The translations under genes and the position numbers were made by a program. A DNA stretch of 64,000 nt from Oryzomicrobium sp. (GTDB lineage Bacteria > Pseudomonadota > Gammaproteobacteria > Burkholderiales > Rhodocyclaceae), in assembly GCF_021287045.1 (NCBI RefSeq), contig NZ_JAJTBG010000001.1:248001-312000 (forward strand). Reading direction: 5' to 3'. Within the stretch, counting starts at the first letter, position 1; each line of letters starts with the position of its first letter. The notes below the pieces were generated by a model. The model was not told where the DNA came from, did not search any database, and worked only from the letters and a program-made list of their open reading frames with translations. Of the stretch, positions 8,725 through 34,181 are shown piece after piece.

Positions 8725-10713
8725 ATGAATCGACCCGTGTTCGCCGTATCCGCCGCCCTCGCCAGCCTGTTCATCGTCTTGTCCGCCCTGTTTCCCAGGC
8801 GCGCGGCCCGGGCGGTGGCCTGGGTCCAGGACGGGATACTGAGCGACTTCGGGTGGTTCTACATACTGGCGGTGGCGCTCCTGCTGCTATTCGTCGTCGT
8901 CCTGCTCTTTTCGCCTTACGGCCGCATCCGCCTGGGCCACGACGGCGACGAGCCGGAGTACAGCTACCCGACCTGGTTCGCCATGCTGTTCTCCGCCGGC
9001 ATGGGCATCGGCCTGCTCTTCTACGGCGTGGCCGAGCCGGTGCAGCATTTCGTCGCGCCCCTGGGGGCGGCCGGCGGCACGGTGGAGGCGGCCAAGGCCG
9101 CCTTCGTCACCACGCTTTTCCACTGGGGGCTGCACGCCTGGGGCATCTACGTGGTGGTGGGGTTGGCTCTGGCCTATTTCGCCTACCGCCACGACCTGCC
9201 GCTCACCATCCGCTCGACCCTGCTGCCCCTGCTCGGCGACCGCATCCACGGCCCCCTGGGCCATGCCGCCGACACCCTGGCGGTGCTCGGCACCCTGTTC
9301 GGCCTGGCCACCTCCCTGGGCTTCGGCGCCCTCCAGGCCAATGCCGGCCTGGCCTACCTGGGGGTGGCGGACAACGGCCTGCCCCAGCAGCTGGCGCTGA
9401 TCGGCCTGATCACCCTGGCCGCCACCGCCTCGGTGGCCAGCGGCCTGGACCGGGGCGTGCGCCGCCTGTCGGAACTCAACCTGCTGCTCGCCCTGTTGCT
9501 GCTGCTCTTCGTCTTCATTGTCGGCCCCAGCGTCTTCCTGTTGTCCACCTTCGTCGAGGGAGTGGGCAACTACCTGTCCCAGATCGTCGGCCTGAGCTTC
9601 CGCACTACCGCCTTCCGCGGCGTCGAGTGGCAGAAGAGCTGGACCATGTTCTACTGGGGCTGGTGGGTGTCCTGGGCGCCCTTCGTCGGCATGTTCATCG
9701 CCCGCATTTCCCGGGGGCGCACCCTGCGCGAATTCGTCGCCGGGGTGCTGTTCGTCCCGGCCCTGTTCAACGCCCTGTGGTTCACCGTGTTCGGCAACAC
9801 CGCCCTGCACAGCGAACTGTTCGGCCCCGGCGGCATCGCCGAGGTGGTGGCCCGGGACATGCCGGCGGCCCTGTTTACCCTGCTCGACCAACTCCCCTGG
9901 GCGGGGCTGACCACGGCCCTGGCCACCGTTCTGGTCGTCACCTTCTTCATCACCTCGGCCGATTCCGGCGCCCTGGTGATCGACATCCTGGCCCATGGCG
10001 GCGACCCCACGCCGCCCCTGTGGAGCCGCATCTTCTGGGCCCTGTCCGCCGGCGGGGTGGCGGCGGTGCTGTTGGTGACGGGCGGACTCCAGGCCTTGCA
10101 GACGGCGGCCATCGTCATGGCCTTGCCCTTTTTGCTGATCATGATCGCCATGGCCGCCTCGCTGCTGCGCGCCCTGCGCGCCGATCCGGGCCAGGACCAG
10201 GCCGAATCCGGCCCAGCCCTGGCCCCGGCGGCGGATTTCGCCCTGCCGGTGAGCGAGGACGCCGGCCCCGGCGACGACTGGCGCGCCCGTTTGGCCGAAG
10301 TGGTGGGCCGCCCCGGCCGGGCCAGGGAAGGCGCCGCCTCCCCTCGGGAGCGCACCCGGCGCGAACTGCGCGACTTCATCGCTGCCACGGCGGTGCCCGC
10401 CTTCGCCCAGATCCAGGGCGAACTGGCGCGCCACGGCCGCCGCGTGGCGGTGGACCGGCATCCCTACCACGTGCGGGTGGCGGTGCTGTCCGGCGACGGA
10501 CGGGAATTCGTCTATACCCTGCGCGCCCGGGCGGACGCCTATGGCGCCTTCCGCATGGCCGACGCTGCCGACGGCGCGGGCCGCCAGGAACCGTCCCGGG
10601 CCGAGGTGGTGCTGGTGGGCGGCGTGCGCAAGTCCCTTCCCCTGTCCGACTGCACCCGGGAGCGGCTGATCGGCGACTTCATCGCCGAATACGCCAAGTG
10701 GCTGGGGTGGTAG
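8725..10713 (+). CDS. BCCT-family transporter (choline/glycine betaine/carnitine type), BetT-like
   Basis: Inner-membrane secondary transporter for a quaternary ammonium compound, probably Na+- or H+-coupled. The 662 residues contain about 12 hydrophobic helices. Family signatures include FSAGMGIGLLFYGVAEPV, the Trp-rich substrate-box region MFYWGWWVSWAPFVGMFIARISRG, and FFITSADSGALV. A cytoplasmic C-terminal extension of about 150 residues follows the last helix, as in BetT-type choline transporters, where it serves osmoregulation. The AGGAGA ribosome binding site fits the ATG at 8725. The exact substrate cannot be read from sequence. Confidence 0.9.
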   Translation: MNRPVFAVSAALASLFIVLSALFPRRAARAVAWVQDGILSDFGWFYILAVALLLLFVVVLLFSPYGRIRLGHDGDEPEYSYPTWFAMLFSAGMGIGLLFYGVAEPVQHFVAPLGAAGGTVEAAKAAFVTTLFHWGLHAWGIYVVVGLALAYFAYRHDLPLTIRSTLLPLLGDRIHGPLGHAADTLAVLGTLFGLATSLGFGALQANAGLAYLGVADNGLPQQLALIGLITLAATASVASGLDRGVRRLSELNLLLALLLLLFVFIVGPSVFLLSTFVEGVGNYLSQIVGLSFRTTAFRGVEWQKSWTMFYWGWWVSWAPFVGMFIARISRGRTLREFVAGVLFVPALFNALWFTVFGNTALHSELFGPGGIAEVVARDMPAALFTLLDQLPWAGLTTALATVLVVTFFITSADSGALVIDILAHGGDPTPPLWSRIFWALSAGGVAAVLLVTGGLQALQTAAIVMALPFLLIMIAMAASLLRALRADPGQDQAESGPALAPAADFALPVSEDAGPGDDWRARLAEVVGRPGRAREGAASPRERTRRELRDFIAATAVPAFAQIQGELARHGRRVAVDRHPYHVRVAVLSGDGREFVYTLRARADAYGAFRMADAADGAGRQEPSRAEVVLVGGVRKSLPLSDCTRERLIGDFIAEYAKWLGW

Positions 10714-10731
10714 GCCGGCGCGTGCTGGAAT

Positions 10732-10763
10732 GGGGAGAAATAGGGAGAAATGGGGGAGAGGGG
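10732..10763 (+). other. G-quadruplex-type motif
   Basis: Four G-tracts (GGGG, GGG, GGGGG, GGGG) are separated by loops of 7, 6 and 3 nt, just downstream of the BCCT stop codon. The motif also contains the short direct repeat GGGAGAAAT. Confidence 0.45.
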
Positions 10764-10868
10764 CCTTGTTGCATGTGGCGCTCATCACAACATGGCCGCC
10801 GACAACTCGGTGCAGTCCGGGGGTGGGGGAAGGAAGCGGGGTGAGTCTGGCGTGTAGGAATGCAGGTG

Positions 10869-12464
10869 CTAACCGTCAGTCGGGAAGACGATTCGTGCAT
10901 TTACGCCGACCTCTTTGAGCAGATACAAAAGTCCGCCTCCATCGATAAGCTCAATCGGTTTGTCCTTCGAGAACTCGAAGGCGTCCTGCCCATAACCACT
11001 GGTTGCCACCAGGATTCCCTTGTTGGCGCCTTCGTTCAGCATCGTGCCGTAAAGGTCCCGGACGGCCGATACACCCACCGTATTCCGATAGCGCTTGCAC
11101 TGGATGACGACTTTGCCGCCGAGGACCGGGCGCGCATCGAACGCCACCGCATCTACGCCACCGTCTCGCGATGATCTGGTTTGCTTGGTTTCAAGGCCCA
11201 TGCGATCAAATAAATTGCTCACCAGGTTTTCGAACTCAAACGGCGACAAGTCCATGAGGTTGGGACGCGCTTCGAGGTCGGCCAGTACATCGCTCTGCTC
11301 GACGAACCGCTTGTCAATCCTGTTGAAGTCGACAATCGGCTTTACCGCTTGCAGTTCATCGGGGCGGGGCGACACGTTGGCGCCAAGATTCCGCAAGCAG
11401 GCCTTCTTGTCGATTCGGGCCAAGTCGATGCCTAGAAAAGTCTCCTTGGTCGCCCGAACCGAAATCAGGTGGGAGGTCATATCCTTGCCGGTAGCCGGAT
11501 TCACGCCGTGTACGAATCCGTTGAATACCGCTACCTGAACACAATCCATTTGATCCGCTTCGAAAATTTCGTGGATGGTTCGTAAGGCAACCGACGCGAC
11601 GACGTCCTGATACAAATCTTTGATGTCCGCCTTTTTTCTGGGTTTGCCATTAATCGAGTCAGATGACTTCACATACTTGTAGGAATCTGCCTCAGGGACA
11701 ATGGCGACCGGCGGCAATTCATACTCAACCACAAGCTCCTTCGATTCTGGGACATAAGCCAGGCGAAATTCTTGGGGGAAATTCTCTGGATAGCGCGACT
11801 TTTCCAAGACCATAGTGTTGTAGGTCACGATGGCATCCGCTTCTGCGTTGCGGTAGGCATTCTCCAGTTCATCCACTTCCTGGTTTCGCTGCCTTACCTT
11901 GGCGAGGAAGAGATCATGGCTGGTCTTGTGTTTCTTCCGCTCGTTGTTTATCGCCGAGGTATGTTTGATGGCAGCATTTTCGTACGCGCTTATTGCCTCG
12001 CTGAAGCGCTGCTCTTCGATGAGAAGGGCTTGCTGGTGGCGCTTAGACGCTCCTGGCACCATGCGAGCTACGAACCCGGGTGGTCGAATCGTATTCCGGA
12101 CGGGCGCTGTAGGCGCCTGAGCGAGGGCGGTGGGTATCGTGAATGCTGGAAAATCGTCTTCCAGCCGTAGATCGTCAAACTGAATTGTGTCGTTGATCGA
12201 CAGAGTGTGCGCGAGTAAGGCGTTGAGTTCCGAGACCTCGGATGCCAGATCGGCATTCATGTCATCGGTCTCTTCCAGGCGAGCTTCCAGATATCGCTGC
12301 TTTGCTTCTCGGGCGTTTGCCGCAGCCTGCCGTGCATTCGCCCTGACCTGGGCAATTTGGGCTCGGTGTGCCCGCCGCGAGGCTGCGTCTGCTTGTCGTT
12401 GTGCTCTAGCCGCCTCACGTGCAATCGCGTTGAGTAGACTCACAACACCCGTTCGCCGTCCCAT
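10869..12464 (-). CDS. Mrr-type restriction endonuclease domain protein with coiled-coil N-terminus
   Basis: Probable DNA nuclease. The C-terminal domain is a Mrr-like PD-(D/E)xK fold: PFEFENLVSNLFDRMG (about 408-423), then Asp438 in DGGVDAVAF and Gln455-Cys-Lys457 in VVIQCKRY. That is the D...QxK catalytic pattern of type IV restriction enzymes such as Mrr. The N-terminal third (about residues 10-85) is Ala/Arg/Glu-rich and predicted coiled coil. The middle 300 residues have no domain I recognise. I place the start at 12464, because the upstream in-frame extension would run through a terminator hairpin. No methylase or other restriction subunit is adjacent. Base composition is somewhat less GC-rich than its neighbours, which suggests acquisition. 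Confidence 0.82.
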   Translation of the reverse strand: MGRRTGVVSLLNAIAREAARAQRQADAASRRAHRAQIAQVRANARQAAANAREAKQRYLEARLEETDDMNADLASEVSELNALLAHTLSINDTIQFDDLRLEDDFPAFTIPTALAQAPTAPVRNTIRPPGFVARMVPGASKRHQQALLIEEQRFSEAISAYENAAIKHTSAINNERKKHKTSHDLFLAKVRQRNQEVDELENAYRNAEADAIVTYNTMVLEKSRYPENFPQEFRLAYVPESKELVVEYELPPVAIVPEADSYKYVKSSDSINGKPRKKADIKDLYQDVVASVALRTIHEIFEADQMDCVQVAVFNGFVHGVNPATGKDMTSHLISVRATKETFLGIDLARIDKKACLRNLGANVSPRPDELQAVKPIVDFNRIDKRFVEQSDVLADLEARPNLMDLSPFEFENLVSNLFDRMGLETKQTRSSRDGGVDAVAFDARPVLGGKVVIQCKRYRNTVGVSAVRDLYGTMLNEGANKGILVATSGYGQDAFEFSKDKPIELIDGGGLLYLLKEVGVNARIVFPTDG

Positions 12465-12507
12465 AATCGCTTTTCCATGTGATCTCAATATGCGATTGGG
12501 AATATAC

Positions 12508-22549: not shown

Positions 22550-24358
22550 ATGGCAACCCTGATTCCCGCAATCTCCACTTGCGCCGGGCGCATGACCGCC
22601 GGCGAAAACCGCTTCGCCCGGCGGCTCGAAGCCAAGCTCGAAGACGACTACCTGCTCTGGTACGACGTGCCCGTGGGCCCGGCCAACCTGCATCCGGACT
22701 TCATCGTCTTCAACCCGCGCCGGGGCATCCTGGTGCTGGAGGTCAAGGACTGGAAGCTGGACACCCTCCAGGCCATGGACCGGGACCACACCACCCTGGT
22801 CACCGCCGATGGGGTTAAGCAGGTGCCCAATCCCCTGGAGCAGGCCCGCCACTACGCCCACGCCGTGGCCGACCTGCTCAAGCGCGATCCCCAACTGACG
22901 TTTTCGTCCGGGCGCGAGCAAGGGAAGCTCTACTTCCCCTGGGGCTACGGCGTGGTGCTCACCAACATCACCCGCAAGCAGTTCGACGACACCGACCTGG
23001 GCGAGGTGATCGCCCCCCACCGGGTGATCTGCCGCGACGAGATGGAAGAGGGCGTCGATGCCGAAGCCTTCCAGCAGCGCCTGTGGGGCATGTTCCCCTT
23101 CAGTCGCAGCACCGCCCTGTCCCTGCCCCAGATCGACCGCATCCGCTGGCACCTCTTCCCCGAAATCCGCATCAACGCCCCGCTCCAGGGCAAGCTCTTC
23201 GCCGACCCGGAGGTGGCCGACATCCCGGACATCGTGCGGGTCATGGACTTGCAGCAGGAACAGCTCGCCCGCAGCCTGGGCGAAGGCCACCGGGTCATCC
23301 ACGGCGTCGCTGGCAGCGGCAAGACCCTCATCCTCGGCTACCGGGCCGAACACCTCGCCCAGGTCTGCCAAAAGCCCATCCTGGTGCTCTGCTACAACCG
23401 CACCCTGGCCAACCGCCTCGCCCAATCCATGGCCGCCAAGGGCCTGGCCGGCAAGGTGCTGGTGCACACCTTTCACCAGTGGTGCCGCGCCCAGTTGGTG
23501 GCCTACAACGCCGGCCTGCCGGAAAAGGGCAACGAGAAAGACGGTGACCAGAGCGCCTACTTCGCCGCCATGGTCGAGCGGGTCATCGGCGGCGTGGACC
23601 GGGGCCTCATCCCCGGCGGCCAGTACGACGCCGTGCTCATCGACGAAGGCCACGACTTCGAGCCCGCCTGGCTCAAGCTCGTCACCCAGATGGTCAACCC
23701 GGACACCAACTCGCTCTTGGTGCTCTACGACGACGCTCAGGACATCTATGCCCGGGGCAAGAAGCAGAAATTCAGCTTCAAGAGCGTCGGCATCCAGGCC
23801 CAGGGCCGCACCACCATCCTCAAGATCAACTACCGCAACACCCACGAAATCCTGCAACTGGCCGCCAGCTTCGCCAAGGACCTGCTCCAGCCCGCTGGCG
23901 CCACGGTCAATGGTGCGGCCGACGAGGACGGCGTGCCCCGCCTCGCCCCCATCAGCGGTGGCCGCCACGGCCCCGAACCCCTGGTGATCCGCCTGCCCAC
24001 CATCAAGGACGAGGCCGAGCACATCGCCAACCGCCTAAAAGCCGCCCACCAGACCGGCATCCCCTGGAACGACATGGCGGTGATCTACCACGACTACGCC
24101 AAGGTGGGAAAAGCGGTGATGGACGTGCTGGCCGCCAAACGCATCCCCTACACCTTCCACAAGAAAGCCACCTTCGCCCCGGACGAACACACGGTAAAGG
24201 TGCTCACCATGCACAGTTGCAAGGGCCTGGAATTCCCCCTGGTGGCCATCCCCGGCGTGGGGGTCATGGAGCAGGAGGAGGAAAAGCGGGATGAATACGC
24301 CCGGCTGCTCTATGTGGCGATGACCCGGGCGACGCAGGAATTGGTGGTGGTGGGGTGA
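22550..24358 (+). CDS. NERD nuclease-domain / UvrD-like SF1 helicase
   Basis: Fusion of a nuclease-related domain with a superfamily 1 helicase. The NERD domain (about 15-130) carries the nuclease pattern Asp50 (HPDFIVF) and Glu64-x-Lys66 (LVLEVKDWKL). The helicase has Walker A GVAGSGKT (252-259), Walker B IDEGHD (about 363-368), INYRNTHEI, the motif V region TMHSCKGLEFP and motif VI YVAMTRA (588-594). It would act on DNA in the cytosol, and such proteins are known from phage-defence neighbourhoods. The protein ends only eight residues after motif VI, exactly where the AT-rich cassette begins, so it may be C-terminally shortened. Confidence 0.88.
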   Translation: MATLIPAISTCAGRMTAGENRFARRLEAKLEDDYLLWYDVPVGPANLHPDFIVFNPRRGILVLEVKDWKLDTLQAMDRDHTTLVTADGVKQVPNPLEQARHYAHAVADLLKRDPQLTFSSGREQGKLYFPWGYGVVLTNITRKQFDDTDLGEVIAPHRVICRDEMEEGVDAEAFQQRLWGMFPFSRSTALSLPQIDRIRWHLFPEIRINAPLQGKLFADPEVADIPDIVRVMDLQQEQLARSLGEGHRVIHGVAGSGKTLILGYRAEHLAQVCQKPILVLCYNRTLANRLAQSMAAKGLAGKVLVHTFHQWCRAQLVAYNAGLPEKGNEKDGDQSAYFAAMVERVIGGVDRGLIPGGQYDAVLIDEGHDFEPAWLKLVTQMVNPDTNSLLVLYDDAQDIYARGKKQKFSFKSVGIQAQGRTTILKINYRNTHEILQLAASFAKDLLQPAGATVNGAADEDGVPRLAPISGGRHGPEPLVIRLPTIKDEAEHIANRLKAAHQTGIPWNDMAVIYHDYAKVGKAVMDVLAAKRIPYTFHKKATFAPDEHTVKVLTMHSCKGLEFPLVAIPGVGVMEQEEEKRDEYARLLYVAMTRATQELVVVG

Positions 24359-24599
24359 GTCATATTTGAAAAGTAACGATGGCAATCGGCCAGAAGCCGC
24401 AATTGAGGATTGCTTCCGATAATGGGCCTCCGAGCTCCTTATTTCTTTTTGCGTTATTAAAGTTGTTGTACATACTCGGCTAAACATATTTGTTGCCTGG
24501 GAATGAATATTCTGTGCGTAATTATCCCAGGGGGTTGATTCGCGTGGGAGCCCAAGGGGCTGTTTAAAAGCTCTCGGTTGTATTTGAGGAAAAGGCGGA
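24359..24599. other. AT-rich boundary region upstream of the three-gene cassette
   Basis: Composition changes abruptly just after the helicase stop codon. The region holds an inverted repeat CCTGGGA (24496-24502) / TCCCAGG (24525-24531) and the 9-mer GATTGCTTC (24408-24416), which recurs at 27726-27734 near the other edge of the AT-rich DNA. I see no gene here. Confidence 0.5.
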
Positions 24600-25127
24600 A
24601 TGAGCGTCGAAGTCTTTGTGCTAAATTTTTTATACAGCCTGCTGGCTACTCTTATAGGTGGTGGAATTCTTGCGTTGCTCTTATTTTGGCTAAAGGAGAA
24701 TGTTTTTCCACTTCCGAATATCGCTGGTCGCTGGTATTTTCAAGTGCGAACTGTCAATACTACCTATAATCCCTATAAGGGGATGGTTTTGGGCTATGTG
24801 GCGATACTTTTGCGTGTAGGTAATCGTATAGAAGGAACTGTTGAAAAGGTTTATGAGAACTCATCTACAGGGGAAAGATATTATGAAGAAAAAAACCGTA
24901 CCAGGGCAGTGATTAAGGGGTTCGTAGAAAAGAGGTATTTTTCAAAAGACTTTGTTTCTCTACATGTTGTCGAAAACGGGTTCGGTCGAGAGTCAACGCA
25001 TTTCTATGAGCTCGTGGCGAGGTCCGATGAAGAGATGGCTGGGAGTTTTACTTCCATGGTTGCCAACCAAGATGGAGAGGTTAAATGGCAAAGAGAAAAG
25101 CCTTGGGCGAAATGCGATATGAGTTGA
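24600..25127 (+). CDS. Small membrane-anchored protein, one TM helix plus beta-rich domain
   Basis: Not assigned to a family. The 175 residues have an N-terminal TM helix (about 8-30, FLYSLLATLIGGGILALLLFW) followed by a soluble domain. That domain is rich in alternating hydrophobic residues typical of beta strands (IAGRWYFQVRTV, YVAILLRVGNRIEGTVEKV, DFVSLHVVENGF, HFYELVAR). The architecture recalls the membrane-anchored beta-barrel effector Cap15 of CBASS systems, but Cap15 has two TM helices and no cyclase gene is present here. A GAGGAAAAGG ribosome binding site precedes the ATG. It is AT-rich, unlike the flanking chromosome, and is the first gene of a three-gene cassette. Confidence 0.72.
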   Translation: MSVEVFVLNFLYSLLATLIGGGILALLLFWLKENVFPLPNIAGRWYFQVRTVNTTYNPYKGMVLGYVAILLRVGNRIEGTVEKVYENSSTGERYYEEKNRTRAVIKGFVEKRYFSKDFVSLHVVENGFGRESTHFYELVARSDEEMAGSFTSMVANQDGEVKWQREKPWAKCDMS

Positions 25128-25293
25128 TGTGATATGTTTTTAGATTTATTTTAAAGTAATTAAATCCGGCCTGGTGACGGCGAGTGAGATAAAGTTACCT
25201 GCTGGGTAATAATTTTATTTTGATAATTTTGAGGCTATTTAAGTGAATAATTTTTTTGTTCACTTTCACTAAGCGCAGATAAGAAGCCGTGGA

Positions 25294-26964
25294 ATGAATG
25301 CAATCGGTACTATTCGGCAGTTGTCAGATATTTTTAAGACGATTGAGCGAGGAGATTTTCTTCCCCTGCATACTTACCATGTGCGAGGAAGAAAAGGAAA
25401 GCTGTTGGGGATTGTTGGGAATGGCCTATGCTACCCGTTACAGCCTTCCCGAAACTCCGAGCTGCTAAAAAAGTGGCTATTAGAGGTAGAGGATAAAAGG
25501 TTCTATCAGCACGGCGCTATCGATTTCAAAGGAGTTGCCCGCGCATTTTTCAAGAATTTGATTGCTGGTAAGCTTGTTCAGGGTGGGAGCACGATTACGC
25601 AACAATTGGCTCGAACCCTTTTCCTTGATCCTTCACGCACATGGGTAAGGAAGCTATCTGAGGCCGTCATTGCCTTAAAACTTGAGCGGCACTTGACTAA
25701 AGACCAGATACTTAATGCCTATTGCGATTTTTCATATATGGGTCGTGGCAGTAGAGGTTTTGAAGCGGCGGCGAGAATCGTATATAGGAAGTCATTCAAA
25801 AAACTAGAGCCAGACCAAATTCCTGCATTGATAGGATTGCTTGGGGCCCCCGAGAGATTTCATCCTGAAAACAACGAAGATCGGTTTTGGATGAGGGCCA
25901 AGCAAAAAGCCAGGACACTAGGGGTTGAAATTGTAAACGCCTCGGTTAATCCAATTCGCATATTGCGTACGCCTAACAAGCGAATCGAAAGTGCGGTGAA
26001 AGATGAACTGGTACGGGCTGGTTTTACTGAGCGAGACATTAAGGCTGTTGAGCTCACCTTGGATGAATCGCTTCAGAGATCGATTGACCAATTGCTAATG
26101 GAGGTATCAAGGCGGCAGGAAGTCGCTCAAGTCGCTGCTATTGTTATTTGCAATAAAACTGGAGATATTCTCGCTGAGTCGTCTTGGAGTAAAGGTCAGA
26201 TAACTCAATTTAGTCCTAGCTTTTCAGGATGCATACAACCTGGATCGACATTCAAGACTTTTGCGCTTCTAACCGCGATTGAATACGGGCTGTCGACTGA
26301 AACAACTTTCGAATCAGCTCCCTACCATTCAGAAAACAAGGCTGGGGCGAAGTGGCAGGTCAGAAACTATGGGCATGCCTATCATGGATGCTTGACATTA
26401 GAAGAGGCTCTTAAAAGGAGTGATAATTCGGTTTTTGCACGTTTAGCCGACTGCCTTGATCAGGATCTGTTGGCGTCCACATATGAGCGGTTTTCCTTAA
26501 TCAATAGGAGCTCCTTTACGACTGCAGCAACTCTAGGTGGGGTTCGAGATGGAGTTTCGCTGTTAAAGCTTGCGAGCGCGTACGCCTCCATTGCCCGTAA
26601 TGGGGTGACGATAGAGCCTCGTCTAGTACGGTTTGTTGAATATGAGGATGGCCAGACAGCATTCGTAAGGCCAAGTTGCAGTCGAGTGGTGGCTGATTAT
26701 GCAGCGATCCAGACTCTTAAGCAGGTACTTGCCTATTCAGGCATTAGAACTATCTCACAGAATATTTCTGGGAAAAGTGGCACTACTAAGAAAAGTAGCC
26801 TGTTTGCAGGATATAACGACGATGTTTCAATAAGCCTATGGCTCAACTTCAATCACGAGCAACCTGAGCATGGTCCAAAGGATTTAACAGCTATTCAGAT
26901 TGTAAAAAATATCGGAAAGAGCTTGCTGGAATGGTCTGAGAATCGCGCATTTTCGATTGTTTGA
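25294..26964 (+). CDS. Leaderless class A penicillin-binding protein (GT51 glycosyltransferase plus transpeptidase)
   Basis: Bifunctional peptidoglycan synthase by domain content. The GT51 domain has Glu66 in EDKRFYQHGAIDFKG, then GGSTITQQLARTLFL (97-111), and the second Glu123 in RKLSEAVIALKLERHLTKDQIL. The transpeptidase domain has Ser318-x-x-Lys321 (PGSTFKTF), Ser376-Asp-Asn378 (KRSDNSVF) and Lys494-Ser-Gly-Thr497, so all three motifs are intact. At 556 residues it is compact. The first 60 residues contain neither a TM helix nor a signal peptide, which is abnormal for an enzyme whose lipid II substrate is used on the periplasmic side. It is AT-rich, lies 166 nt after the small membrane gene, and is followed after 1 nt by another membrane gene. 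Confidence 0.9.
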   Translation: MNAIGTIRQLSDIFKTIERGDFLPLHTYHVRGRKGKLLGIVGNGLCYPLQPSRNSELLKKWLLEVEDKRFYQHGAIDFKGVARAFFKNLIAGKLVQGGSTITQQLARTLFLDPSRTWVRKLSEAVIALKLERHLTKDQILNAYCDFSYMGRGSRGFEAAARIVYRKSFKKLEPDQIPALIGLLGAPERFHPENNEDRFWMRAKQKARTLGVEIVNASVNPIRILRTPNKRIESAVKDELVRAGFTERDIKAVELTLDESLQRSIDQLLMEVSRRQEVAQVAAIVICNKTGDILAESSWSKGQITQFSPSFSGCIQPGSTFKTFALLTAIEYGLSTETTFESAPYHSENKAGAKWQVRNYGHAYHGCLTLEEALKRSDNSVFARLADCLDQDLLASTYERFSLINRSSFTTAATLGGVRDGVSLLKLASAYASIARNGVTIEPRLVRFVEYEDGQTAFVRPSCSRVVADYAAIQTLKQVLAYSGIRTISQNISGKSGTTKKSSLFAGYNDDVSISLWLNFNHEQPEHGPKDLTAIQIVKNIGKSLLEWSENRAFSIV

Positions 26965-26965
26965 G

Positions 26966-27688
26966 ATGATGGAAATCCTAAAAGTCTTAGTGGCACCTAT
27001 CCTTGTGGCACTCGTTAGTTGGCTTGTTAAGGACTACATGTTTGCCCAGCAAAAGGCTAAGCAAGATTTGCTTCGAAATGAGTGGCTTAGGCGCTTGACA
27101 ACATTCTGGTCGCCTTTGTTTCTTTGGTCTGGAATGGTCTTGTTTCCTAAGCATGGGGATGGTCATAACATTGAGAAAGCAGTTTCCGAATTGACTACAG
27201 CCTTGGCAGGAAATGCTCACCTGCTTCCAATTAAGCATTACTACGTAATCATGTCGCTTATTGAAAAAGCAACTGTATTGCCTGAAAAGGATCTTGATTT
27301 AAGCGTTGTTAACGATACTCGAGCTTATGTTTATAGGCAAATAGAAATACTTAACTATCTGTTGTATAAACGCGATAACAGCTTTGATCCGCTGACTAAT
27401 GCAGAATTTATTGGTTCCCCCTTGGCGCTGGTTAGGGCTGCAGCAAACACAACGCTACATCTATTAACCTGGGGGCTATTGGCTGGGTTTTTATATCTTG
27501 GGTATTTCTTTTTGAGTGAAGGTAATTTATTTGGAAGTATTTTGTATTCGTTTATATTAATTCTGCCATTGTGGGCTGATGCTGAAAAAAGAATCGAGAT
27601 GCGTCGTGAAACAGTCAATCACCGAGCTGGAAGGAATAAATATGGGCTGCTCGCAATGCTTCGTTGGGGCAAGAAAAAATTGGCGTGA
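26966..27688 (+). CDS. Membrane protein with N-terminal and paired C-terminal TM helices, coupled to the PBP gene
   Basis: Family not recognised. The 240 residues have an N-terminal TM helix (ILKVLVAPILVALVSWLV), a central soluble helical region beginning QQKAKQDLLRNEWLRRLTTF, and two C-terminal TM helices (about TLHLLTWGLLAGFLYLGYFF and LFGSILYSFILILPLW), followed by a basic tail ending GKKKLA. The ATG at 26966 lies 1 nt after the PBP stop codon, which indicates translational coupling and joint stoichiometry. A TTG at 26957 would overlap the PBP by 8 nt and is an alternative start. Its AT-rich composition matches the other cassette genes. It could be the membrane tether the PBP itself lacks. 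Confidence 0.72.
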   Translation: MMEILKVLVAPILVALVSWLVKDYMFAQQKAKQDLLRNEWLRRLTTFWSPLFLWSGMVLFPKHGDGHNIEKAVSELTTALAGNAHLLPIKHYYVIMSLIEKATVLPEKDLDLSVVNDTRAYVYRQIEILNYLLYKRDNSFDPLTNAEFIGSPLALVRAAANTTLHLLTWGLLAGFLYLGYFFLSEGNLFGSILYSFILILPLWADAEKRIEMRRETVNHRAGRNKYGLLAMLRWGKKKLA

Positions 27689-27845
27689 TGCACTAGTCTT
27701 TAACCTTCCGCGACATCACTTGAACGATTGCTTCTGTATGTAACGTATGTCAGCTAAGGGGTGATTGCTGATGACGTGCTAGTCCTCCAGTCCTTGGGAG
27801 CTTTGAACCGAGAGTACTGTTCTCCTACGCGCTATCATTCGCTCC

Positions 27846-29339
27846 ATGAGCGACCTGTTTTCTTCCCTGGAGCCGCCCGTCCCTGAGGGCGGCTCCGCGC
27901 CTTCCGGGGTGGATGCCCCGCCGCCGCCCCTGGCGGAGCAGTTGCGGCCCAAGACCGTGGCCGAGGTGATCGGCCAGCAGCACCTGCTCGGGCCGGGCAA
28001 GCCCCTGGCTCTGGCGTTTGCCTCGGGCGAGCCCCATTCGATGATCTTCTGGGGGCCGCCGGGGGTGGGCAAGACCACCCTGGCGCGGCTGATGGCAGAC
28101 GCCTTCGACGCCGACTTCATCGCCCTCTCGGCGGTGTTCTCCGGCATCAAGGACATCCGCGAGGCCATGGCCCGGGCCGAGGCGGCGCGGGCCCGGGGGC
28201 GGCGCACCATCCTGTTCGTCGACGAGGTGCACCGCTTCAACAAGGGTCAGCAGGACGCCTTCTTGCCCTACGTGGAATCGGGCACTGTCACCTTCGTCGG
28301 CGCCACCACCGAGAACCCGTCCTTCGAGGTCAATTCGGCCCTGCTCTCCCGGGCCTCGGTGTATGTGCTGCAATCCCTCACCGCCGAGGAAATGGGCCAG
28401 TTGTTCGCCCGGGCCCGGGAAAAAGCCTTCCCCGAGCTGACCTTCGACGAGCAAGCCCAGGAGCGGCTGATCGGCGTGGCCGACGGCGACGCCCGCAAGC
28501 TGCTCAACCTGCTGGAACAGATCCGTACCGCCGCCCGTACGGCCAAGACCACCACGGTGGACGGCGACTTCATCAACGCCGCCCTGGCCCAGCAGCTGCG
28601 CCGCTTCGACAAGGGCGGCGAGGCCTTCTACGACCAGATTTCGGCCCTGCACAAGTCGGTGCGTGGCTCCAACCCGGACGCCGCCTTGTACTGGCTGGTG
28701 CGCATGCTCGACGGCGGCGCCGACCCGCGCTACCTGTCGCGCCGGCTGATCCGCATGGCCTGGGAAGACATCGGCCTGGCCGACCCCCGCGCCGCCGAGA
28801 TCGCCACCACCGCCGCCGACACCTATGAGCGCCTCGGTTCCCCCGAGGGCGAGCTGGCCCTGGCCCAGGCGGTGATCTACCTGGCGGTGGCGGCCAAGAG
28901 CAACGCCGGCTACATGGCCTACAACCAGGCTCGGGCCTTCGTGCAGCGCGACGTGTCGCGGCCGGTGCCGATCCACCTGCGCAACGCCCCGACCAAGCTG
29001 ATGAAGGAACTGGGCTACGGCAAGGAATACCGCTACGCCCACGACGAGCCCAACGCCTACGCCGCCGGCGAAACCTACCTGCCCGACGGCATGGCCGACC
29101 CCGGCTGGTACCAGCCCGTGCCCCGGGGCATGGAAGCCAAGATCGGCGAAAAGCTGGCCTGGCTGCGGGGCCTGGACGAAGAAGCGCGGCAGGAGGCCCG
29201 GGCCGCCGAACGCGCCCGGCGCGGCGCTGGGGCGAACCCTGCCAACGCCGCCAATGCCAATGCCGCCAACCCCGGCGTGGCCCCGGCGGCCAAGCCCGTG
29301 GCGCCCGCCAAACCGCCCAAGCCGCAAAGCGAGGATTGA
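27846..29339 (+). CDS. rarA: Replication-associated recombination protein A (MgsA/RarA AAA+ ATPase)
   Basis: Cytosolic AAA+ ATPase acting at stalled replication forks and related to clamp loaders. The 497 residues contain Walker A GPPGVGKT (70-77), Walker B TILFVDEVHRFNK, sensor 1 VGATTENPSFEVNSALLSR and the C-terminal tetramerisation region IRMAWEDIGLADPRA. The last 40 residues are a low-complexity Ala/Asn/Pro tail. The return to high GC here marks the end of the AT-rich cassette. serS follows on the same strand, the usual order. Confidence 0.95.
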   Translation: MSDLFSSLEPPVPEGGSAPSGVDAPPPPLAEQLRPKTVAEVIGQQHLLGPGKPLALAFASGEPHSMIFWGPPGVGKTTLARLMADAFDADFIALSAVFSGIKDIREAMARAEAARARGRRTILFVDEVHRFNKGQQDAFLPYVESGTVTFVGATTENPSFEVNSALLSRASVYVLQSLTAEEMGQLFARAREKAFPELTFDEQAQERLIGVADGDARKLLNLLEQIRTAARTAKTTTVDGDFINAALAQQLRRFDKGGEAFYDQISALHKSVRGSNPDAALYWLVRMLDGGADPRYLSRRLIRMAWEDIGLADPRAAEIATTAADTYERLGSPEGELALAQAVIYLAVAAKSNAGYMAYNQARAFVQRDVSRPVPIHLRNAPTKLMKELGYGKEYRYAHDEPNAYAAGETYLPDGMADPGWYQPVPRGMEAKIGEKLAWLRGLDEEARQEARAAERARRGAGANPANAANANAANPGVAPAAKPVAPAKPPKPQSED

Positions 29340-34088: not shown

Positions 34089-34181
34089 GGAGAGGTACCG
34101 AAGTGGTCATAACGGCGCCGACTCGAAATCGGATGGTCAGGGAAACCTGGCACAAGGGTTCGAATCCCTTCCTCTCCGCCA
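34089..34181 (+). tRNA. tRNA-Ser (anticodon CGA)
   Basis: The acceptor arms GGAGAGG and CCTCTCC close a class II tRNA with a long variable arm (TGGTCAGGGAAACCTGGCA region). The anticodon loop is CTCGAAA with anticodon CGA, reading codon UCG. The T-arm is GGGTTCGAATCCC. The 3' CCA (34179-34181) is encoded. Length is 93 nt. Confidence 0.95.

What the first reader, a model, noticed from the sequence alone, without database searches (positions are those of the whole stretch)
24359..27845. AT-rich three-gene cassette of membrane protein, leaderless PBP and coupled membrane protein
Seen: three same-strand genes in visibly AT-rich DNA between GC-rich flanks, a 1-nt gap between the last two, and TM helices in the first and third but none in the enzyme. 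Known: cassettes with membrane-anchored effectors and enzymes next to NERD helicases and nucleases occur in defence islands. Inferred: the three form one functional unit, perhaps a phage-response or cell-envelope-targeting system in which an ordinary peptidoglycan enzyme domain has been recruited. I know of no named system with this combination.
Basis: partly seen in the sequence, partly recalled or inferred. Interest (0 to 1): 0.85.

Follow-up and report, generated by a model that had tools for sequence, protein, structure and literature searches.

The report
Membrane beta-barrel paired with peptidoglycan polymerase
A small membrane-anchored barrel protein in this genome belongs to a widespread, apparently undescribed family that in the cases found sits beside an enzyme that polymerises cell-wall precursors, and that enzyme often looks as if it stays inside the cell, which suggests a new kind of cell-envelope weapon or defence switch.

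Summary
In detail: three same-strand genes in 42-48% GC DNA between about 68% GC flanks. Gene 3 has no detected relatives, so the trio is not conserved. Gene 1 is one membrane helix plus an 8-stranded barrel. Where relatives turned up with gene 1 as bait (3 in genomes, 5 viral contigs, 1 plasmid), each has a short solo peptidoglycan glycosyltransferase (GT51) directly downstream. Of 80 solo-GT51 loci, 41 have a gene-1 relative, 34 a putative nucleotidyltransferase, 1 both, 4 neither. Pairs mostly overlap, two are fused, and the GT51 catalytic glutamates are invariant. In the window a leaderless class A PBP of ordinary lineage takes the GT51's place; the NERD-UvrD helicase upstream recurs beside gene 1 in three other loci. 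Best reading: a mobile module, probably defence- or toxin-like, in which a cytosol-facing barrel gates a lipid II polymerase at the inner membrane face. Pairing: strongly supported. Mechanism: inferred. Cap15 membership was tested and not met. Seven literature searches showed no description.

The parts
22550..24358 (+). NERD-UvrD helicase (PADLOC model C3a187); recurrent upstream neighbour of gene 1
   Evidence: Pfam NERD E 1e-12 and UvrD_C E 4.4e-21; PDLC01087 E 6.3e-183; relatives at 57-60% identity directly beside gene-1 relatives in L079, L080, L085
24600..25127 (+). gene 1: single membrane helix plus 8-stranded beta-barrel, barrel predicted cytosolic
   Evidence: AlphaFold model pLDDT 94.7; family of 41 aligned rows; more K/R after than before the helix in 40 of 41 rows; no Pfam, PADLOC or NCBIfam match at E up to 1
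25294..26964 (+). gene 2: leaderless class A penicillin-binding protein (GT51 + transpeptidase), catalytic motifs present
   Evidence: Pfam Transgly and Transpeptidase; GT51 catalytic Glu positions kept; groups with ordinary GT51s, 40% mean identity over the GT51 core, against 29% to solo GT51s
26966..27688 (+). gene 3: membrane protein of unknown family, 1 nt after gene 2; orphan in the searches run
   Evidence: ORF; no relatives; no Pfam, PADLOC or NCBIfam family
24360..27840 (.). AT-rich insert between the GC-rich helicase gene and the GC-rich ORF starting at 27846
   Evidence: GC profile; limits approximate

Best explanation
Genes 1 and 2 are a variant of a mobile module: a membrane-anchored beta-barrel plus a peptidoglycan glycosyltransferase (lipid II polymerase). 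Shown by sequence: the pairing, the tight coupling elsewhere, two natural fusions, conserved catalytic residues, and an alternative partner (putative nucleotidyltransferase) for the sister group of leaderless GT51s. Inferred: the barrel lies in the cytosol and binds a signal; it tethers or gates the GT51 at the inner leaflet, where lipid II is made before it is flipped; when released, the GT51 polymerises or traps lipid II on the wrong side, which starves wall synthesis and ties up the lipid carrier, arresting or killing the cell, most plausibly as abortive infection or a toxin-antitoxin-like switch. In this window an ordinary-lineage PBP without a membrane anchor fills the enzyme slot, and the NERD-UvrD helicase upstream is a recurrent but not obligatory extra component.
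For: 41 of 80 solo-GT51 loci carry a gene-1 relative. In 37 same-strand pairs the median gap is -22 nt, 18 with exactly a 22-nt overlap and 9 with a 4-nt overlap. One-ORF fusions in L070 and L117, with one strong membrane helix, before the barrel, and none called before the GT51. Gene-1 bait: 3 of 3 matches in genomes other than the window's have GT51 next door, 5 of 5 viral contigs, 1 of 1 plasmid. The two catalytic Glu positions are invariant in 46 of 46 gene-1-linked and 37 of 37 nucleotidyltransferase-linked GT51s and kept in gene 2. 34 of 36 nucleotidyltransferase-linked GT51s lack a strong N-terminal hydrophobic segment. E. coli copies lie in prophages and on a plasmid. Helicase beside gene 1 in L079, L080, L085.
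Against: No function has been tested. 36 of 43 gene-1-linked solo GT51s do have a hydrophobic N-terminal segment whose charge bias does not settle its orientation (of 42 rows, 21 against 15, 6 equal), so those GT51s could be periplasmic. The window's PBP comes from another GT51 lineage and is 166 nt from gene 1, so its partnership rests on adjacency and analogy. Flanks of gene-1 loci show few known defence genes: in the 25 of 133 PADLOC families printed, the only ones with 3 of 150 neighbours are helicase models (C3a187, GajB and RTasNERD-Hel), the rest have 1-2, and ordinary metabolic genes are common; no random-gene control was run. Two gene-1 relatives of 41 match PADLOC AbiQ weakly (best E 2.1e-4) and one matches Pfam ToxN_toxin (E 0.0043), which the barrel model does not explain. 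The phage-record collection held no gene-1 relative at E 0.01, and the class sample gave none besides the window's own (1 of 369 genomes).
Confidence: 0.42

Rival explanations
1. Protective envelope module: the GT51 is exported by its N-terminal segment, works in the periplasm, and thickens or repairs peptidoglycan, for example to exclude a second phage or to delay lysis, with gene 1 as a regulator.
For: Hydrophobic N-terminal segment in 36 of 43 gene-1-linked GT51s; prophage position between antiterminator Q and holin genes in L023 and L024.
Against: Fusions L070 and L117 have a single strong helix, before the barrel; 34 of 36 nucleotidyltransferase-linked GT51s and gene 2 have no strong N-terminal hydrophobic segment.
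Confidence: 0.22
2. Gene 2 is a decayed, stray PBP copy that merely landed beside gene 1 together with an unrelated gene 3.
For: It belongs to the ordinary PBP lineage, lacks an anchor, is 166 nt from gene 1, and no second case of gene 1 with a full PBP was found.
Against: The ORF is intact, with both Pfam domains and GT51 catalytic residues; it is not a recent copy of the host's other GT51 proteins (at most 42% identity in aligned pieces); an unrelated GT51 in the slot that GT51s fill elsewhere is unlikely by chance (inference, not computed).
Confidence: 0.15
3. Nucleotide-signalled effector: gene 1 is a remote Cap15/2TM-beta-like receptor, and GT51 or PBP is its client or ancillary enzyme, with the nucleotidyltransferase of the sister modules as signal maker.
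For: Helix plus 8-stranded barrel architecture; 1 of 41 members weakly matches PADLOC 'Effector 2TM' (E 0.0026); in L085 GT51, putative nucleotidyltransferase, gene 1 and the helicase lie together.
Against: Profile-profile comparison with 12 Cap15-type proteins gives probability 4.4 (E 0.0028) over the full length and 0.07 for the barrels alone; PF18153 is not among the 14 Pfam families matched at E up to 1 by any of 41 members; the putative nucleotidyltransferase has no significant fold match in the PDB (0 at E 0.001) and is present in 1 of 42 gene-1 loci.
Confidence: 0.13
4. All three window genes form one dedicated unit, with gene 3 as a third component.
For: Same strand, shared AT-rich composition, 1-nt gap between genes 2 and 3.
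Against: No relatives of gene 3 in the searches run.
Confidence: 0.2

Closest known systems
Class A penicillin-binding proteins (PBP1a family, TIGR02074)
   Same: Gene 2 has GT51 and transpeptidase domains with catalytic motifs and is nearest to ordinary GT51s in the tree.
   Different: No hydrophobic segment in its first 60 residues; below the PBP_1a curated cut-off (304.5 against 508.75 bits); sits beside gene 1 in an AT-rich insert.
Monofunctional peptidoglycan glycosyltransferases (MtgA type)
   Same: The solo GT51s of the related loci have one GT51 domain in about 180-260 aa.
   Different: They form a group apart from the eight ordinary sequences used, one of which is a 291-aa frame of the window's genome (support 0.87), and are paired with gene 1 or a putative nucleotidyltransferase.
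CBASS effector Cap15 / Panoptes 2TM-beta (S-2TM-beta family)
   Same: N-terminal membrane segment followed by a beta-barrel (Panoptes passages of PMC12657218 and PMC12657230; eight strands in Cap15 is recalled).
   Different: One helix instead of two; no convincing profile relation; partner is GT51, not a cyclase.
PADLOC model C3a187 (NERD+UvrD helicase)
   Same: The upstream helicase is a near full-length match.
   Different: The model covers that protein only; the window's genes 1-3 match no PADLOC model. Near full-length relatives also occur without a gene-1 hit within about 1.5 kb (4 of 4, tblastn with the window's gene 1).

Membership tests
Cap15 / S-2TM-beta effector | Two N-terminal transmembrane helices | tested here: not met
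   One helix, 3-34, in the model
Cap15 / S-2TM-beta effector | C-terminal 8-stranded beta-barrel | tested here: met
   Eight long strands between 43 and 164 in the model, plus one short strand 91-94; best PDB matches are designed barrels and lipocalin- or avidin-like proteins; no Cap15 entry among the 50 rows shown of 679
Cap15 / S-2TM-beta effector | Sequence-profile homology (PF18153 or profile-profile) | tested here: not met
   PF18153 not among the families matched by 41 members; hhalign probability 4.4 (E 0.0028) full length, 0.07 barrel only
Cap15 / S-2TM-beta effector | Operon with a CD-NTase or mCpol cyclase | tested here: not met
   Partner is GT51 or PBP; 1 of 42 gene-1 loci also has a putative nucleotidyltransferase of unproven type; mCpol was not searched for
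Cap15 / S-2TM-beta effector | Binds a cyclic nucleotide | not testable with these tools
   Needs biochemistry
Class A PBP | GT51 and transpeptidase domains with catalytic residues | tested here: met
   Pfam hits; GT51 Glu positions; SxxK, SxN and KxG-type motifs read by eye, motif names recalled
Class A PBP | N-terminal membrane anchor with periplasmic catalytic domains | tested here: not met
   No hydrophobic segment in the first 60 residues; no earlier start codon in frame; location itself not testable here
Gene-1 plus GT51 module defined here | Gene-1 relative next to a GT51 enzyme | tested here: met
   Window genes 1 and 2; 41 of 80 loci elsewhere plus 1 with both partners
Gene-1 plus GT51 module defined here | GT51 belongs to the solo group and overlaps or abuts gene 1 | tested here: not met
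   Window GT51 groups with ordinary PBPs and is 166 nt away
Anti-phage defence system | Protects cells from phage | not testable with these tools
   Only circumstantial: prophage and plasmid carriage and the helicase neighbour

The most novel reading that the evidence does not exclude
Bacteria and their prophages carry a categorically new conflict module that weaponises or repurposes lipid II polymerisation on the cytosolic face of the membrane: a leaderless GT51 controlled either by a membrane-anchored beta-barrel or by a nucleotidyltransferase, with a NERD-UvrD helicase as sensor in some lineages. This window shows the enzyme slot refilled independently by a full PBP stripped of its anchor.
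Probability: 0.35. Interest if true: 0.95.

Novelty: categorically new. Interest (0 to 1): 0.8.

Why it matters
Peptidoglycan polymerases are thought to work outside the inner membrane. A widespread, horizontally mobile module that pairs such an enzyme with a cytosol-facing barrel, or with a putative nucleotidyltransferase, and often without an export signal, would mean either a new way to poison or pause cell-wall synthesis from the inside or a new defence logic aimed at lipid II. It gives two hypothetical-protein families a testable role, and E. coli prophage copies exist, so it can be tested in laboratory strains.

Tried and rejected
Three-gene unit: rejected as a conserved unit because gene 3 has no relatives in the searches run. 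Cap15 membership: tested and not met; an eye-level similarity of the barrel's first and last strands was not borne out by hhalign, although its full-length E-value of 0.0028 is not nothing. Weak matches of gene-1 relatives to AbiQ (2 of 41, best E 2.1e-4) and ToxN_toxin (1 of 41, E 0.0043) were not resolved. Known fold or family for the putative nucleotidyltransferase: the PDB profile search (best E 0.076, to a transcriptional regulator) and Foldseek (0 matches at E 0.001) gave nothing; its name rests on a GSxxxG...SDxD motif, one weak Pfam hit (E 0.012) and one weak PADLOC 'Cyclase' hit (E 0.0054). Close relatives of gene 2: none in viral contigs by single-sequence patterns, about 30% identity in the plasmid rows listed. 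Phage collection with the E. coli gene-1 relative: none. A Priestia solo transglycosylase looked by eye like an ordinary one with a lipoprotein-like leader and was not pursued. Literature: seven searches showed no paper describing the pair; I saw listings and abstract starts, term passages of PMC12657218 and PMC12657230, and zero occurrences of six terms in the main text of PMC13092281. Subscription papers and most preprints are not in that library.

Dropped rows and biases: the 80 loci are the best of 378 by similarity to the first sequence of the query, which is a gene-1-linked GT51, so the 41:34 split favours gene-1 loci and is not a census; some loci are near relatives of each other (for example L079/L080, L057/L060). 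A6 uses 40 of 45 gene-1 references plus P0001 (left out: L043 long start, L052 and L097 truncated, L070 and L117 fusions). A7 uses 28 of 37 nucleotidyltransferase references (L074, L077, L092, L093, L101, L102, L111, L113, L115 left out as truncated, odd-start or near-duplicate). Flank scans used 150 of 158 and 115 of 118 selected neighbours (proteins over 900 aa and overflow left out, one by oversight). Nine ordinary GT51 loci were offered to the tree and eight aligned. E. coli hit H5 was not opened. Cap15 profile: 12 sequences; L128 and L135 were fetched but not used.
Full report
What is there. The window holds a GC-rich chromosome stretch (about 68% GC) with an AT-rich insert at about 24360-27840. 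Inside it lie gene 1 (24600-25127+, 175 aa), gene 2 (25294-26964+, 556 aa) and gene 3 (26966-27688+, 240 aa); 241 nt before gene 1 ends a NERD-UvrD helicase gene (22550-24358+). The flanking genes read by eye as ftsK, lolA, a PstS-like protein, a serine hydrolase, rarA and serS; those names are recalled from the translations and come from no call. The genome held is 3.9 Mb in 26 contigs and is unnamed.

Gene 2 is a class A PBP without an anchor. Pfam finds the transglycosylase (E 5.5e-48) and transpeptidase (E 7.5e-24) domains. The GT51 catalytic glutamates are in place (their role is recalled), and the ORF has no hydrophobic segment in its first 60 residues. The host has other GT51 proteins, in frames of 772, 291, 841 and 880 aa, at most 42% identical in the aligned pieces. 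In the GT51 tree gene 2 sits with the eight ordinary sequences used, at 40% mean identity, against 29% to the solo GT51s described below. In plasmids its listed best matches are about 30% identical.

Gene 1 is the key. The window's protein matches nothing in Pfam, PADLOC or NCBIfam at E up to 1. tblastn against 72,556 plasmid records gave one hit, on an E. coli plasmid, whose next gene is annotated 'transglycosylase domain-containing protein'. In 300 genomes of its order the only other match, G297 at 62% identity, also has a short GT51 next to it. A four-row profile in 369 genomes of the class found only the window's own copy. The 41-row profile in 398 genomes of the phylum and 399 of the order found two copies in G861 and again G297; 3 of 3 matches outside the window's own genome have a solo GT51 directly beside them. 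With gene 1 as bait in viral contigs, 5 of 5 loci lie on contigs that a separate GT51 scan also found, with gene 1 running into the GT51; these are few lineages. A more diverged gene-1 relative (L037, L038) was missed by that bait and found only through its GT51. In E. coli, 5 of 5,426 genomes hold the pair (the query spanned both genes, so the pairing there is by construction). Of the four opened, one copy lies in a prophage among tail genes, two lie between antiterminator Q and holin genes in prophages, and one lies in an element with two integrases.

Scale of the module. A scan of genome contigs with solo GT51s found 378 relatives, of which the best 80 loci were kept. By profile, 41 of 80 have a gene-1 relative in the locus, 34 of 80 a putative nucleotidyltransferase, 1 both (L085) and 4 neither, one of these four (L120) being by eye a partial gene-1/GT51 fusion. 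The ranking follows similarity to a gene-1-linked GT51, so the split is not a census. Record titles name Gammaproteobacteria, Comamonas, Herminiimonas, Geobacter, Desulfobacterales, Acidobacteria, Fibrobacteres, Aliarcobacter, Ignavibacteriae, Bacteroidales and Poribacteria among others. In 37 same-strand gene-1/GT51 pairs the median gap is -22 nt, with 18 exact 22-nt overlaps and 9 4-nt overlaps; 30 of 35 GT51/nucleotidyltransferase pairs overlap (ORFs taken at their longest, so some overlaps are overestimated). Not every gene-1 partner follows this layout: in L106 gene 1 is downstream, in L085 it is on the other strand, and in L097 only an opposite-strand fragment is seen. In L070 and L117 gene 1 and GT51 are one ORF of 403 and 400 aa. 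The two catalytic glutamates are invariant in 46 of 46 gene-1-linked and 37 of 37 nucleotidyltransferase-linked sequences. The STI..Q motif was part of the search pattern, so its conservation is not independent evidence. The 89 solo sequences form one group against the ordinary ones (support 0.87), split mostly into a gene-1 group (43 of 44 members) and a nucleotidyltransferase group (34 of 39) (only eight ordinary sequences from two genomes served as outgroup).

The helicase. Among 150 flanking proteins of gene-1-type loci (of 158 selected), the top recurrent PADLOC and Pfam families are those of a NERD+UvrD helicase like the window's, 3 of 150 (25 of 133 and 25 of 139 families printed). The three lie directly beside gene 1 on its strand: two Comamonas loci (L079 and L080; at L079 a 17-nt gap, then gene 1, then GT51 with no gap) and Herminiimonas (L085, where GT51 and nucleotidyltransferase on the other strand converge on gene 1), at 57-60% identity to the window's helicase. 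The two Comamonas loci are near relatives, so this is about two independent cases plus the window. A remoter helicase (E 3.5e-16) also follows one nucleotidyltransferase-type locus, L103. The helicase is not obligatory: four near full-length relatives in 40 other genomes of the family gave no tblastn hit to the window's gene 1 within about 1.5 kb, a test that could miss diverged copies. Otherwise the neighbourhoods are not dominated by known defence genes: gene-1 flanks show single hits to type I restriction parts and PDC candidates among many metabolic genes, and nucleotidyltransferase-type flanks show a few methyltransferases and single hits to AbiEii, a type I specificity subunit, IetA and PDC candidates among 115 of 118 neighbours (25 of 209 families printed). 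No random-gene control was run, so I claim no enrichment of defence genes in general.

Structure and side of the membrane. Gene 1 is modelled with pLDDT 94.7 as one helix (3-34) and eight long strands. Foldseek finds designed, lipocalin-like and avidin-like barrels; no Cap15 entry is among the 50 rows shown of 679. Positive charges outnumber those before the helix in 40 of 41 relatives, which puts the barrel in the cytosol (a simple count, not a topology program). In the two fusions no second strong helix is called before GT51, which would put GT51 on the same side. Against this, 36 of 43 solo GT51s linked to gene 1 carry a hydrophobic N-terminal stretch whose charge bias is ambiguous, while 34 of 36 nucleotidyltransferase-linked ones and gene 2 have no strong one. 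The side of action is therefore the main open question.

Mechanism. Shown: conserved pairing, overlap, fusion, intact catalytic residues, mobile carriage. Established knowledge (recalled): GT51 enzymes polymerise lipid II, which is made on the cytosolic leaflet and flipped outward. Inferred: a cytosol-facing GT51 held by gene 1 could polymerise or trap lipid II on the wrong side, a strong way to stop wall synthesis. Control by gene 1, or by a nucleotidyltransferase in sister modules, fits a toxin-antitoxin or abortive-infection switch, and phage or plasmid carriage fits a conflict role. In the window a PBP without its anchor fills the enzyme slot. That a GT51 of a different lineage sits there suggests that the GT51 activity matters, not that particular protein; but this is a single case, and a stray PBP is not excluded.

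Known systems. Panoptes and CBASS use a two-helix beta-barrel effector with a cyclase (passages of PMC12657218 and PMC12657230). Gene 1 resembles it in layout but fails the helix-number, profile and partner tests. The main texts of the two Panoptes papers contain no occurrence of 'transglycosylase'. The seven literature searches named in Tried and rejected showed no description of the pair. I therefore rate the module as categorically new in composition, with function unproven.

Noticed in passing
L026 3860-5114, L039, L040 and 34 of 80 genome loci (for example L071, L078, L103): A sister module: a solo GT51, mostly without a hydrophobic N-terminus, next to a gene for a putative nucleotidyltransferase of about 225 aa (GSxxxG...SDxD) with no known family or significant fold match.
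   Followed up: partly
L085 6046-9877: Herminiimonas locus with GT51 and nucleotidyltransferase on one strand converging on gene 1, with the NERD-UvrD helicase upstream of gene 1: all components in one place.
   Followed up: partly
L070 3348-4559 and L117 268-1470: Natural fusions of gene 1 and GT51 in one ORF.
   Followed up: partly
L023 and L024, about 8950-10100: The gene 1/GT51 pair sits between antiterminator Q and holin genes of E. coli prophages, a place known for accessory cargo (recalled).
   Followed up: no
alignment A6 (gene-1 relatives): Two of 41 gene-1 relatives match PADLOC AbiQ weakly (best E 2.1e-4) and one matches Pfam ToxN_toxin (E 0.0043); which rows and why was not worked out.
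   Followed up: no
L041 5857-7068: A solo GT51 in a viral contig facing a membrane/coiled protein unlike gene 1; neither usual partner was found.
   Followed up: no
window 10501-12500: A second local GC dip (about 0.54) outside the finding.
   Followed up: no
window 34089-34181: tRNA-Ser (cga) gene, the only tRNA found in the window.
   Followed up: no
G861 contig 2, 1154143-1154637 and 3646942-3647448 (L125, L124): One genome carries two diverged copies of the gene 1/GT51 pair.
   Followed up: partly
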